In this document: piece after piece, positions 3,518 through 31,684 of the stretch
Position numbering within the stretch: the stretch's first letter is position 1
Layout of the letters: each line of letters begins with the position of its first letter
NCBI GenBank assembly: GCA_903873705.1
Contig: CAIQPK010000022.1
Span: 1 to 64,000 of the forward strand
Origin: an uncultured Acidobacteriota bacterium
GTDB taxonomy: Bacteria; Acidobacteriota; Terriglobia; Terriglobales; Acidobacteriaceae
Length of the DNA stretch: 64,000 bases
Direction: 5' to 3'
Notes under the pieces: generated by a model
The model's database searches: none
What the model saw: only the letters and a program-made list of their open reading frames with translations
Told to the model about the DNA's origin: nothing
Made by a program: the position numbers and the translations under genes

Positions 3518-3604
3518 GCCGAAATGGCGGAATTGGCAGACGCGCGTGGTTCAGGTCCACGTTCTCGCAAGGGAGTGGAGGTTCGAGTCCTCTTTTCGGC
3601 ACCA
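3518..3604 (+). tRNA. tRNA-Leu (anticodon CAG)
   Basis: The acceptor arms GCCGAAA and TTTCGGC pair fully, followed by discriminator A and an encoded CCA (3602-3604). The anticodon stem GTGG/CCAC encloses the loop TTCAGGT, giving anticodon CAG. A long variable arm typical of leucine tRNAs and a T-arm with GGTTCGAGTCC are present. Total length with CCA is 87. Confidence 0.97.
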
Positions 3605-3627
3605 AAATTTTAGTACCTGAATAAGGC

Positions 3628-3657
3628 AAAGGGCGGGAGCCAATCCCGCCCTTTCTG
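3628..3657 (+). terminator. Rho-independent terminator after tRNA-Leu
   Basis: Perfect 11-bp stem AAAGGGCGGGA / TCCCGCCCTTT with a 5-base loop and a short T-rich tail, 24 bases after the tRNA. Confidence 0.85.
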
Positions 3658-3856
3658 CTGCCCCGTCCGTGGTATTTGCCACTTAGCCACCTTACTCGAG
3701 CCGGCCACCAAAATCAGCCTATTACTTTTGGCACCCCTCCCGCTCACAGGCAAAATCCCCCCATTTCGCCCAAATTAGCAGGAATTCCCCCCACTCCCTT
3801 CTGCGTAATGCTCCTTTAGTGAGCCCCATCCCCCATCCGGGTCATGTCGTCTTTGC
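3658..3856. other. Intergenic stretch without a recognisable gene
   Basis: Between the tRNA terminator and the leader structure at 3857 there is no reading frame with plausible codon use or a ribosome binding site. The promoter of the small unit at 3857-4086 presumably lies here, but no convincing -35/-10 pair could be chosen. Confidence 0.5.
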
Positions 3857-3907
3857 GTATCTCCACCGAAGGTAGATGCAGTACCTAAATCGGCCCGTCG
3901 GAGATAC
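3857..3907 (+). promoter_or_regulatory. mRNA leader stem that sequesters the Shine-Dalgarno of the 3911 peptide
   Basis: GTATCTCC (3857-3864) is exactly complementary to GGAGATAC (3900-3907), and the second arm contains the GGAG ribosome binding site of the GTG at 3911. Inside the 35-base loop a second stem forms: AGGTA (3870-3874) with TACCT (3882-3886). The nested design resembles leaders that control translation by masking the ribosome binding site. Whether a ligand, protein or temperature opens it is not visible. Confidence 0.5.
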
Positions 3908-3910
3908 ACC

Positions 3911-4009
3911 GTGCACGATCTCATTGTCGCTTGTACTTTCTTACTCATCGTCATCTCACCCTGCATCGTTGCCATGCGCGTCGCCGCAGCCGAGCCCGGT
4001 GGCGACTAG
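3911..4009 (+). CDS. 32-residue hydrophobic membrane peptide (small ORF)
   Basis: A GTG start has GGAG 7-8 bases upstream and is followed by 31 codons and TAG. The product begins MHDLIVACTFLLIVISPCIV, continues AMRVAAA and ends EPGGD: one transmembrane helix (about residues 4-22) with a short polar tail, so it should be a single-span inner-membrane peptide. Support comes from context: a leader stem covering the ribosome binding site, and a factor-independent terminator 50 bases after the stop, make a complete short transcription unit. It resembles no family I can name. Overlapping longer frames have worse codon use. Confidence 0.55.
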   Translation: MHDLIVACTFLLIVISPCIVAMRVAAAEPGGD

Positions 4010-4060
4010 ATACCTCCGCATCGCAGGCCAGCTAACCCTCCCCAAAACGCCGCAAACGAC

Positions 4061-4086
4061 AAGGGCACCCATCTCGGGTGCCTTTT
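4061..4086 (+). terminator. Rho-independent terminator of the small-peptide unit
   Basis: GGCACCC (4064-4070) pairs with GGGTGCC (4076-4082) around the loop ATCTC, flanked by AAG and TTTT. It follows the 32-codon ORF on the same strand. Confidence 0.75.
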
Positions 4087-4231
4087 ACGTTTTCCCCAAC
4101 ACTCTCCCACTCGCGCAACACGATCAACGAGCACACAGCGCCTTCACCCGTGGGCGAAGTTGCGAGTTCTTAGTTCTTAATCTTGTGGACCGCGTTGAAT
4201 CAATTGCAAGCAAGACACTAACAACCCACAA

Positions 4232-4684
4232 CTAGCTATACAACGCCGCTTCAAACTGCCGCAGCGCCTCATCGCTCCACGCGTGCGACTGCCTCCGCCA
4301 CCCATTCGGATCGTCATCCAGAAAATTCGGAAAGTCGGACCGGCACACCGCAATCTTCGCCGCAAAATCCACCAGCGCCTGCGCCGTGCCATCCAGATAC
4401 AGCACCGCCTGCAGCCCATCCCGAGACCACTGCACCGAAGCCAACCGCTCCCGCTCGCGGTCCTCCAGCGAGCTGACGTTATAGATCAGCATCGCATCCA
4501 GGATCGCCGCATCATGCGTCTCCCGCGACCGGTCGCAAGCATAAAAGTACCCCGCCGGCCCCTCATCCTCAAACACCACCGTCCACGGCGGTGAAGGCGA
4601 GTTTGAAGAAAGAAAAGCACGTCCGGGAGTGAAAGTAAGCGAGTCCATTATGAACAGGGTACAGGCAATGAGAATGTAAGGCAT
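4232..4684 (-). CDS. DUF2251-like protein with N-terminal hydrophobic segment
   Basis: About 150 residues from the ATG at 4684; an ATG at 4765 is open but overlaps the upstream gene and adds a basic stretch. The N-terminus has a short hydrophobic segment (MPYILIACTLF), so it may be exported or anchored. The rest, beginning at PWTVVFEDEGPAGYFYACD, matches what I recall of DUF2251, small proteins of unknown function with a conserved FEDEGPTGYFY-like start and a C-terminal region rich in Phe, Trp and Asp. It follows the secreted protein at 4696-5475 by 11 bases and is likely co-transcribed. Confidence 0.65.
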   Translation of the reverse strand: MPYILIACTLFIMDSLTFTPGRAFLSSNSPSPPWTVVFEDEGPAGYFYACDRSRETHDAAILDAMLIYNVSSLEDRERERLASVQWSRDGLQAVLYLDGTAQALVDFAAKIAVCRSDFPNFLDDDPNGWRRQSHAWSDEALRQFEAALYS

Positions 4685-4695
4685 CCATGCGCGCG

Positions 4696-5475
4696 CTACT
4701 TTGGAACGATGTCTTTCATTTTCTCGTCGCCACCTTGGCCGAGCTGAAATGGGACAAGGGGCCACGGCAAATCGTTGTGAAACTGAAGTCTCACCGTTAG
4801 CAATTGGTTCAGAATCGCGACGTCGTTCGCAGTCGCCGTGAACAAGAACATACGGCCCTGGTAGAGTACCCCGATCATGGCAATCAATGTCTTTCCAGCT
4901 GATGCCCTGCGCTTTCCGTCCGCATCTTTCGTGTCAGCAGAAACTATCGACAGAATCACATGTGCCTTATCTATGTCGTAGTCGATCATGGAAGCCGCAG
5001 GAGTAAATCCCTGCCGCTTGCGAAGAACCGCCACTATCCCGGCAACGAAGTCATCGTCAGATTCATCCGCTGCTTTACATCTTCTCATCACTTCCTGCAA
5101 AGTGAGCCCGCCAGTTGGTGGTTCGGGGGAAAAATGCTTGGAATCTTCCGGCTCATAGTGGATCAGAGGATTACCCGCACCCACTTGGATATGGATCGGG
5201 TAGCACCCGTCTTTCTCCCCGTCTTTCGGATCTCCGAATGACGCGCGGAATGACCGCTGTTGCTCAGGATCCTCTTTCCGGAAGTCCGGAGAATATTGGA
5301 CAACCATATCCGATTCCGGAATAGCAAACGTTGCCCGCTGAGGGCTTCCGGGAGGATCGACAACGCTCACACTCACCTTGCCACCCTTGGTCTTTGACGC
5401 GCCTGCACTCTGTGCATGGAGAGAAAGCGCGATCCCGAAACTCAACCCGGCGGTGATCGCAACACGCATTTTCAT
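4696..5475 (-). CDS. Secreted protein of unknown function
   Basis: A 259-residue protein with a clear signal peptide (MKMRVAITAGLSFGIALSLH, cleavage likely after HAQ). The mature part is soluble, with an early Asp/Pro-rich region, three Cys (including GCYPIHIQV and RRCKAADE), and a C-terminal half of alternating strands (VILSIVSA, KTLIAMIGVLYQGRMFLF). I do not recognise a family. Third-position GC is much lower than in neighbours, and the partner gene downstream is also of mixed composition, which fits recent acquisition of the pair. Confidence 0.7.
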   Translation of the reverse strand: MKMRVAITAGLSFGIALSLHAQSAGASKTKGGKVSVSVVDPPGSPQRATFAIPESDMVVQYSPDFRKEDPEQQRSFRASFGDPKDGEKDGCYPIHIQVGAGNPLIHYEPEDSKHFSPEPPTGGLTLQEVMRRCKAADESDDDFVAGIVAVLRKRQGFTPAASMIDYDIDKAHVILSIVSADTKDADGKRRASAGKTLIAMIGVLYQGRMFLFTATANDVAILNQLLTVRLQFHNDLPWPLVPFQLGQGGDEKMKDIVPK

Positions 5476-31597: not shown

Positions 31598-31684
31598 AGG
31601 GCCGAAGGTCCGATCCATAACAGCCTGGGCCGAAGGCCCAGGTACGGTAAGGAAAGAATCAGAGGGCTGAAGGCCCGATCCATA
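31598..31684. repeat. Cluster of palindromes with a direct repeat (REP-like element)
   Basis: AGGGCCGAAGGTCCGATCCA plus TA (31598-31619) is repeated with two changes at 31663-31684, flanking the perfect palindrome CCTGGGCC-GAA-GGCCCAGG (31624-31642). It lies immediately downstream of the orphan antitoxin, where the toxin gene would be. Confidence 0.7.

What the first reader, a model, noticed from the sequence alone, without database searches (positions are those of the whole stretch)
3857..4086. Self-contained unit: RBS-masking leader, 32-codon membrane peptide, terminator
GTATCTCC at 3857 is exactly complementary to GGAGATAC at 3900, which contains the Shine-Dalgarno of a GTG-initiated 32-codon frame coding for a single transmembrane helix. 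A second stem (AGGTA/TACCT) nests inside, and a GC-rich terminator follows 50 bases after the stop. The three parts together look like a regulated small-protein gene or a structured RNA that standard gene callers would miss.
Basis: partly seen in the sequence, partly recalled or inferred. Interest (0 to 1): 0.75.

Follow-up and report, generated by a model that had tools for sequence, protein, structure and literature searches.

The report
Multi-copy mini membrane-peptide family
The short reading frame is a real gene for a 32-residue membrane peptide, one of a widespread, apparently undescribed family in soil Acidobacteriaceae in which many copies carry the same kind of promoter, while the ribosome-masking stem that drew attention is peculiar to this copy and one relative.

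Summary
The frame 3911-4009 is a genuine protein gene: 139 distinct relatives were collected from one bacterial family (Acidobacteriaceae), consensus about MHDLLIAxAFxxMVxxPxxVA plus a polar tail. P17 is invariant, F10 nearly so; pN/pS is 0.07-0.39 in frame against 0.84-2.86 out of frame. Genomes give up to nine matches, in many cases in tandem, at different intergenic sites. The window site lies between tRNA-Leu(CAG) and a convergent DUF2251 gene; 8 of 24 DUF2251-bearing genomes of the genus have the peptide there, and three show the site without it.

The main result lies outside the given coordinates. Many copies share a promoter, GTGGNAT-N22-[GC]ATN[AC]T (58 of 62 spacings exactly 22 nt), followed by an mRNA that starts with a hairpin just before the ribosome site. 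The window copy has at most a degenerate, shifted version.

The masking stem is real (8 bp; chance about 0.006 for this leader) but not a family trait: near-complete masking occurs in 2 of 9 copies at this site. No Rfam, Pfam, NCBIfam, PADLOC, PHROGs or PDB family fits.

Best reading: a co-regulated set of small membrane peptides acting on a membrane partner. A type I toxin is the main rival; antitoxin RNA was not found but cannot be excluded.

The parts
3518..3604 (+). tRNA-Leu (anticodon CAG), upstream neighbour
   Evidence: Rfam RF00005 51.1 bits at 3518-3601; ARAGORN in L072 694-780
3628..3654 (+). terminator-like hairpin after the tRNA (AAAGGGCGGGA/TCCCGCCCTTT)
   Evidence: read; a hairpin of the same kind also follows the tRNA in L064, L065 and L066
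3728..3756 (+). sigma-70-like consensus match (TTGGCA-17-CAAAAT), sense strand, 155 nt before the gene; role unknown
   Evidence: 9 of 12 positions; 1 found in 3600-4300 against a mean of 0.3 in shuffles
3778..3812 (+). weak, shifted match to the family promoter (GCAGGAA-N22-AATGCT)
   Evidence: composite matrix score 5.5, p=0.007 at -133 with free position (one of 22 genus copies tested); at the usual distance the best score is reached by 7.7% of shuffles
3857..3864 (+). 5' arm of the masking stem, GTATCTCC
   Evidence: fold
3870..3886 (+). nested stem AGGTA/TACCT
   Evidence: fold
3900..3907 (+). 3' arm of the masking stem, GGAGATAC, containing Shine-Dalgarno GGAG 3900-3903
   Evidence: predicted accessibility 0.001-0.002, 4th or 5th lowest of 126 members
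3911..4009 (+). small membrane peptide gene, GTG start, MHDLIVACTFLLIVISPCIVAMRVAAAEPGGD
   Evidence: own paralogs, relatives, codon pattern, predicted helix 2-27 at mean pLDDT 88.8
4061..4085 (+). intrinsic terminator; the complementary strand of the same stem (4064-4082) also has terminator form, towards the convergent gene
   Evidence: terminator-like hairpin found after 7 of 8 window-site copies
4232..4765 (-). convergent neighbour, DUF2251 protein (ORF as listed; the conserved start is more likely the internal ATG giving MDSLTFTPGRAF)
   Evidence: PF10008 E 1.5e-34; present in 24 of 28 genomes of the genus

Best explanation
The unit is a protein-coding gene of a multi-copy family of about 32-residue single-helix membrane peptides of the Acidobacteriaceae. 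Shown by comparison: conserved coding sequence; many paralogs at different intergenic sites; at 56 distinct places before members an exact shared promoter whose GTGGNAT box lies 22 nt upstream of a -10-like hexamer; behind that promoter a short leader dominated by a hairpin just upstream of the Shine-Dalgarno sequence. Inferred: an unknown transcription activator, bound over the -35 region, switches these copies on together; the hairpin at the mRNA 5' end protects the message; the peptide inserts as one helix and, through conserved His2, Phe10, Pro17 and small residues, binds and tunes a membrane protein. In the window copy the hairpin covers the ribosome site, the start is GTG and the promoter is degenerate, so this copy is probably weakly translated or being lost.
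For: Relatives: 17 of 61 genomes at E<=1 by single sequence, the weakest of them chance-like; by profile 142 of 398 family genomes at E<=0.1, of which 111 have a best E<=0.001 by my count of the table, and 102 of 256 good-quality genomes at E<=0.1; 139 distinct members collected, mostly from the stronger hits. Coding: pN/pS in frame 0.07 (15 orthologs of one genus), 0.39 (9 window-site copies), 0.26 (18 copies of another genus), against 0.84-2.86 in the other frames; 116 members together 0.40 against 0.83 and 1.80. Residues: P17 139 of 139, F10 136, H2 131, M13 120. Promoter: GTGGGAT in 30 of 139 upstream regions against 0.9 expected; spacing 22 in 58 of 62; 56 distinct exact sites 50-130 nt before members against 2 elsewhere in the held DNA; of 79 further members outside the training set and not near-duplicates, 32 exceed the 99th percentile of matched shuffles, 0.8 expected. 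Leader hairpin: mean z -1.96 over 54 leaders against +0.09 and -0.54 in control stretches. Helix model.
Against: The activator was not identified, and no start site, transcript or peptide was measured. Copies at the window site lack the exact promoter (0 of the 8 so labelled), and the window itself does not reach the threshold at the usual place (7.7% of shuffles as good). 47 of 79 members outside the training set do not exceed the 99th percentile. In minimum-energy folds of leader plus 30 nt of gene the ribosome site was unpaired only 28% on average, so the hairpin does not simply leave it free. The membrane partner is a guess: neighbours are unrelated genes. 19 of 28 genomes of the genus have no match at E<=0.001, so the function is dispensable. 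Only 26 of 139 members have a terminator-like site under the rule (3 in shuffles). A type I toxin would look similar in several respects.
Confidence: 0.6

Rival explanations
1. A type I toxin-antitoxin family: each peptide is a membrane-damaging toxin held down by an antisense RNA and by mRNA structure.
For: Under 60 residues in nearly all members, one hydrophobic helix, polar tail, tandem copies in intergenic DNA, patchy presence. The window copy has a GTG start, a stem over the ribosome site and a terminator that works in form on both strands, as reviewed for Fst of pAD1 (PMC7472228, passages and section 4). One member, L153, has a family-type promoter pattern 59-94 nt after its stop pointing at the gene.
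Against: No sigma-70-like site on the antisense strand of 3600-4300. The family promoter pattern occurs antisense near 1 of 139 members only. Masking is not general. Very strict residue conservation (P17 139 of 139) points to a specific partner, although proline is also essential in Fst. Clear direct repeats as in pAD1 par were not found.
Confidence: 0.25
2. A small accessory subunit of one respiratory or transport complex, present as several isoforms.
For: Strict helix conservation and separate control per copy; some copies lie next to genes that read like ccmA/B/C/E (my reading of sequences, not a family search).
Against: No constant neighbour; no match in many good genomes of the same genus; no convincing Pfam subunit model (Ycf9 best E 0.0039 in 2 of 37, FixS 0.051 in 1 of 37).
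Confidence: 0.1
3. A structured RNA or riboswitch-like leader in which the reading frame is incidental.
For: Hairpin leaders; the window fold has z -1.76.
Against: Codon pattern; no Rfam match at gathering score over the unit and nothing near a gathering score at the permissive threshold; leader sequence and masking vary freely.
Confidence: 0.03
4. A leader peptide that attenuates the next gene.
For: Some copies lie roughly 190-400 nt upstream of a same-strand gene that reads as DAHP synthase.
Against: The next gene differs from copy to copy and is convergent at the window site; terminator-like hairpin after 7 of 8 window-site copies; no run of regulatory codons in the peptide.
Confidence: 0.02

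Closest known systems
Fst/Ldr superfamily of type I toxins (par of pAD1, ldr/rdl)
   Same: About 33 residues, one helix with a conserved proline, polar tail, tandem paralogs (Ldr; tandem copies recalled); in the window copy also GTG start, stem over the ribosome site and a two-way terminator (features of Fst as seen in PMC7472228)
   Different: PxxxA rather than PxxxG (A 121, G 0 of 139), tryptophan in only 3 of 139 members, proline late in the helix, no antisense gene detected at the window, activator-type shared promoter, no Pfam match
Regulatory small membrane proteins such as AcrZ, KdpF, MgtS (recalled)
   Same: Single conserved helix under purifying selection
   Different: Those have known partners and are not multi-copy families (recalled); here up to nine matches per genome and no known partner
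DinQ/TisB-type stress-induced peptides (DinQ: search listing and start of abstract, PMC3567139; TisB recalled)
   Same: Small single-helix peptide, regulated transcription
   Different: Those are damage-induced with antisense RNAs; here the regulator is unknown and there are many copies with a shared promoter

Membership tests
Type I toxin-antitoxin toxins | small hydrophobic peptide under 60 residues with one helix | tested here: met
   median length 32, 95th percentile 38.5, longest 130; hydropathy above 1.6 in 99%; helix model of the window peptide
Type I toxin-antitoxin toxins | antisense RNA antitoxin | tested here: inconclusive
   no antisense promoter-like site in window 3600-4300; family promoter pattern antisense at 1 of 139 members; transcripts cannot be tested here
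Type I toxin-antitoxin toxins | toxic on overproduction | not testable with these tools
   needs expression
Fst/Ldr superfamily | tryptophan between helix and charged tail | tested here: not met
   W anywhere in the first 45 residues of 3 of 139; the review notes that the Fst prototype itself lacks it
Fst/Ldr superfamily | [PDST]xxxG in the helix | tested here: not met
   fourth residue after P17 is G in 0 of 139, A in 121
Fst/Ldr superfamily | direct repeats and a convergent short antitoxin RNA sharing the terminator | tested here: not met
   only short two-copy repeats of 10-12 nt in 3840-4240; the convergent gene is a DUF2251 protein; a short RNA itself cannot be excluded
Family described here | profile match with H2, F10, P17 | tested here: met
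   window peptide E 4.9e-14 with A1, an alignment that contains it; independent single-sequence hits to its own paralogs, E 1.0e-6 and 1.4e-5
Family described here | GTGGNAT-N22-[GC]ATN[AC]T promoter | tested here: inconclusive
   window p=0.007 at a shifted position, 0.077 at the usual place; a sibling copy in the same genome scored above all 550 shuffles at the usual place
Known Rfam families | score at or above gathering threshold over 3857-4086 | tested here: not met

The most novel reading that the evidence does not exclude
Acidobacteriaceae carry a scattered regulon devoted largely to one paralogous family of about 32-residue membrane peptides: up to nine copies per genome, many with the same fixed-geometry activator promoter and a hairpin at the mRNA 5' end, so that one signal releases a dose of closely similar peptides into the membrane.
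Probability: 0.4. Interest if true: 0.78.

Novelty: new variant of a known kind. Interest (0 to 1): 0.6.

Why it matters
Small membrane proteins are poorly catalogued outside a few model species. Here is a strongly conserved family, absent from the protein and RNA libraries searched, whose copies sit at many different sites and in many cases share a promoter precise enough to predict start sites to a few bases. That makes the regulator, the signal and the membrane target directly testable in culturable soil bacteria, and gives a marker for finding a new transcription factor binding site in a little-studied phylum.

Tried and rejected
Leader as a conserved masking device: rejected as a family trait. 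Rfam at gathering and permissive thresholds: nothing over the unit at a meaningful score. Mobile-element origin: one peptide per collection gave no plasmid or phage tblastn match (weak tests for so short a query); three genomes show the tRNA-Leu/DUF2251 site without the unit; I did not search for insertion genes or terminal repeats at each copy. Functional partner from neighbours: many recurrent neighbours but no constant one. Structure-blind alignment of leaders was too poor for covariation counts, so hairpin support rests on folding energies with controls. A first test of promoter matches outside the training set gave 31 of 61 over the threshold, but its shuffles were shorter than the stretches tested and some rows were near-duplicates; it is replaced (32 of 79). 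Members outside Acidobacteriaceae: two weak partial hits among 396 phylum genomes, taken as chance. Literature: four searches; no listed title concerned such peptides in these bacteria; subscription journals are mostly not held. Papers read: PMC8309996, passages only; PMC7472228, passages and section 4; the others by search listing and start of abstract only.

Full report
Observation. GTATCTCC 3857-3864 pairs with GGAGATAC 3900-3907, AGGTA 3870-3874 with TACCT 3882-3886; a GTG-started frame runs 3911-4009; a terminator stem lies at 4061-4085. The fold of 3840-4095 has z -1.76. A helix of at least 8 pairs over GGAG appears in 113 of 20000 shuffles of this leader: rare for one gene, unremarkable for a 64 kb window.

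The frame is a gene. In its own genome the peptide has two tandem relatives on another contig (57-64% identity). Among 61 genomes 17 gave matches at E<=1, the weak ones including chance hits. From 22 clear members (alignment A1) a profile found matches in 142 of 398 genomes of the bacterial family at E<=0.1 (111 of 398 with a best E<=0.001 by my count of the table), up to 9 matches per genome, and in 29 of 396 genomes of the phylum at E<=0.01, 27 of them in the same family and 2 weak partial hits outside. The family is Acidobacteriaceae, judged from three named loci and the taxonomy of Bryocella elongata. Gathering held sequence, mostly around the stronger hits, gave 139 distinct members (rows with identical 60 nt upstream plus ORF were merged). 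Coding selection: in-frame pN/pS 0.07 in 15 orthologs of one genus, 0.26 in 18 copies of another, 0.39 in 9 window-site copies; the other two frames gave 0.84-2.86; for 116 members together 0.40 against 0.83 and 1.80. Residues: P17 139 of 139, F10 136, H2 131, M13 120, A21 121. Start codons: ATG 137, TTG 1, GTG 1, the last being the window. A model of the window peptide is one helix, residues 2-27, mean pLDDT 88.8 with five sequences. No family fits: Pfam and NCBIfam (only weak scattered hits, best E 0.0039), PADLOC, PHROGs (one hit at 0.034 in 1 of 22), PDB sequences.

Where the copies sit. The window unit lies between tRNA-Leu(CAG) and a convergent DUF2251 gene. Comparing coordinates, 8 of the 24 genus genomes with DUF2251 have the peptide beside it (G000, G006, G009 with two tandem copies, G012, G018, G024, G025, G027). 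In G002, G022 and G010 the tRNA and DUF2251 are adjacent with no peptide between (loci L064, L065, L069). Other copies occupy other recurring sites, whose neighbours read (my reading, not a family search) as ccm genes and DAHP synthase, an M28 peptidase and thiC, glyA and a hydrolase, folC and others; 30 of 139 fell in no recurring group. Tandem clusters occur in several genomes. No neighbour is constant, so the unit is probably autonomous. One plasmid and one phage search gave no match.

The shared promoter. Upstream regions of different copies share words at fixed distance: GTGGGAT in 30 of 139 (0.9 expected), GTGCTAT in 23, GTGGAAT in 18, median position -82 to -85. Alignment of 15 orthologs shows conserved blocks upstream of and within the gene, while most of the sequence between them varies. 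Of 62 pairings of GTG[GC]NAT with a downstream [GC]ATN[AC]T hexamer, at 77 GTG[GC]NAT sites, 58 had a spacing of exactly 22 nt. The second and last bases of the hexamer (A 71 of 77, T 72 of 77) behave like the A and T of a bacterial -10 element. A further upstream element tends to a palindrome TACCAC-N4-GTGGTA. In the held DNA (1.32 Mb counted on both strands, with redundancy) the exact pattern occurs at 56 distinct places 50-130 nt before a member and at 2 others. One of these two lies 194 nt before member L136; the other lies 59-94 nt after the stop of member L153 on the opposite strand, pointing at the gene. Of 79 members outside the training set and not near-duplicates, 32 exceed the 99th percentile of matched shuffles at the usual distance (24 of 57 outside the window's genus, 8 of 22 within it) and 47 do not. 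With the box ending about 35 nt before the likely start site, the simplest inference is an activator bound over the -35 region. None of the 8 copies labelled as window-site carries the exact pattern (the window itself fell outside that automatic label). The window has a weak match at -133 (p 0.007) and none at the usual place (7.7% of shuffles as good), plus a sigma-70-like consensus match at 3728-3756; its sibling copy on contig 45 scores above all 550 shuffles at the usual place.

The leader. Behind the exact promoters the inferred 5' leader has a median of 42 nt (the start site is assumed, not measured). It forms a hairpin just upstream of the ribosome site: mean z -1.96 over 54 distinct leaders, against +0.09 for equal stretches farther upstream and -0.54 after the stop. 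Stems differ in sequence between groups while staying complementary. Such a hairpin at the mRNA 5' end would be expected to slow decay (inference). Against a simple picture, the ribosome site was unpaired only 28% on average in minimum-energy folds of leader plus 30 nt of gene. It is not specially masked compared with shuffled upstream sequence: mean accessibility 0.355 against 0.388 in 119 members. Among 9 window-site copies only the window and the G018 copy are almost fully masked, with unrelated stem sequences; a third, in G025, is less accessible than its shuffles (p=0.02); as a group p=0.56.

How it most likely works. Shown by comparison: coding conservation, copy number, shared promoter in many copies, hairpin leader. 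Inferred: coordinated induction, membrane insertion, action on a specific partner through the conserved face. The strict conservation of single residues favours a partner over simple membrane damage, but proline is also essential in Fst-type toxins (PMC7472228, section 4), so a toxin remains possible at about one in four. The window copy differs from the norm in three ways expected to lower expression (GTG start, masked site, degenerate promoter) and may be a quiet or decaying copy.

Limits and mends. Neither changes the odds.

Noticed in passing
window 31598-31642 (-): Acido-Lenti-1 RNA (RF01687) just above its gathering score (37.3 against 37 bits).
   Followed up: no
L069, just after tRNA-Leu at 1184-1270 (G010): A second copy of the tRNA-Leu 3' end follows the tRNA at this site, which looks like a trace of an integration event at the tRNA.
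   Followed up: no
downstream of the peptide in genus g51 orthologs, e.g. L124, L131, L132, about 79 nt after the stop: A conserved block (exact core in 10 of 15) that reads on the same strand as RVAGM[AT]FNFSAV, changing mostly at third positions by eye; possibly a second small gene of that locus.
   Followed up: partly
G000:C45, L002 1415 and 1584 (-): Tandem pair of the peptide in the window's own genome; only the first copy has the promoter match, so the two may be co-transcribed.
   Followed up: partly
L114, L125, L126: In three genomes of genus g9 peptide copies lie near genes that read as a ccm (cytochrome c maturation) cluster; in L114 copies lie on both sides of it.
   Followed up: partly
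L091 1236 and 2205 (-): Two copies with identical peptides inside a 253-nt repeat at 99% identity, with a tRNA-Thr gene between them: a recent duplication.
   Followed up: no
upstream of members, about -110 to -140: Extra palindromic TACCAC-N4-GTGGTA elements suggest a dimeric regulator with more than one site per promoter.
   Followed up: partly
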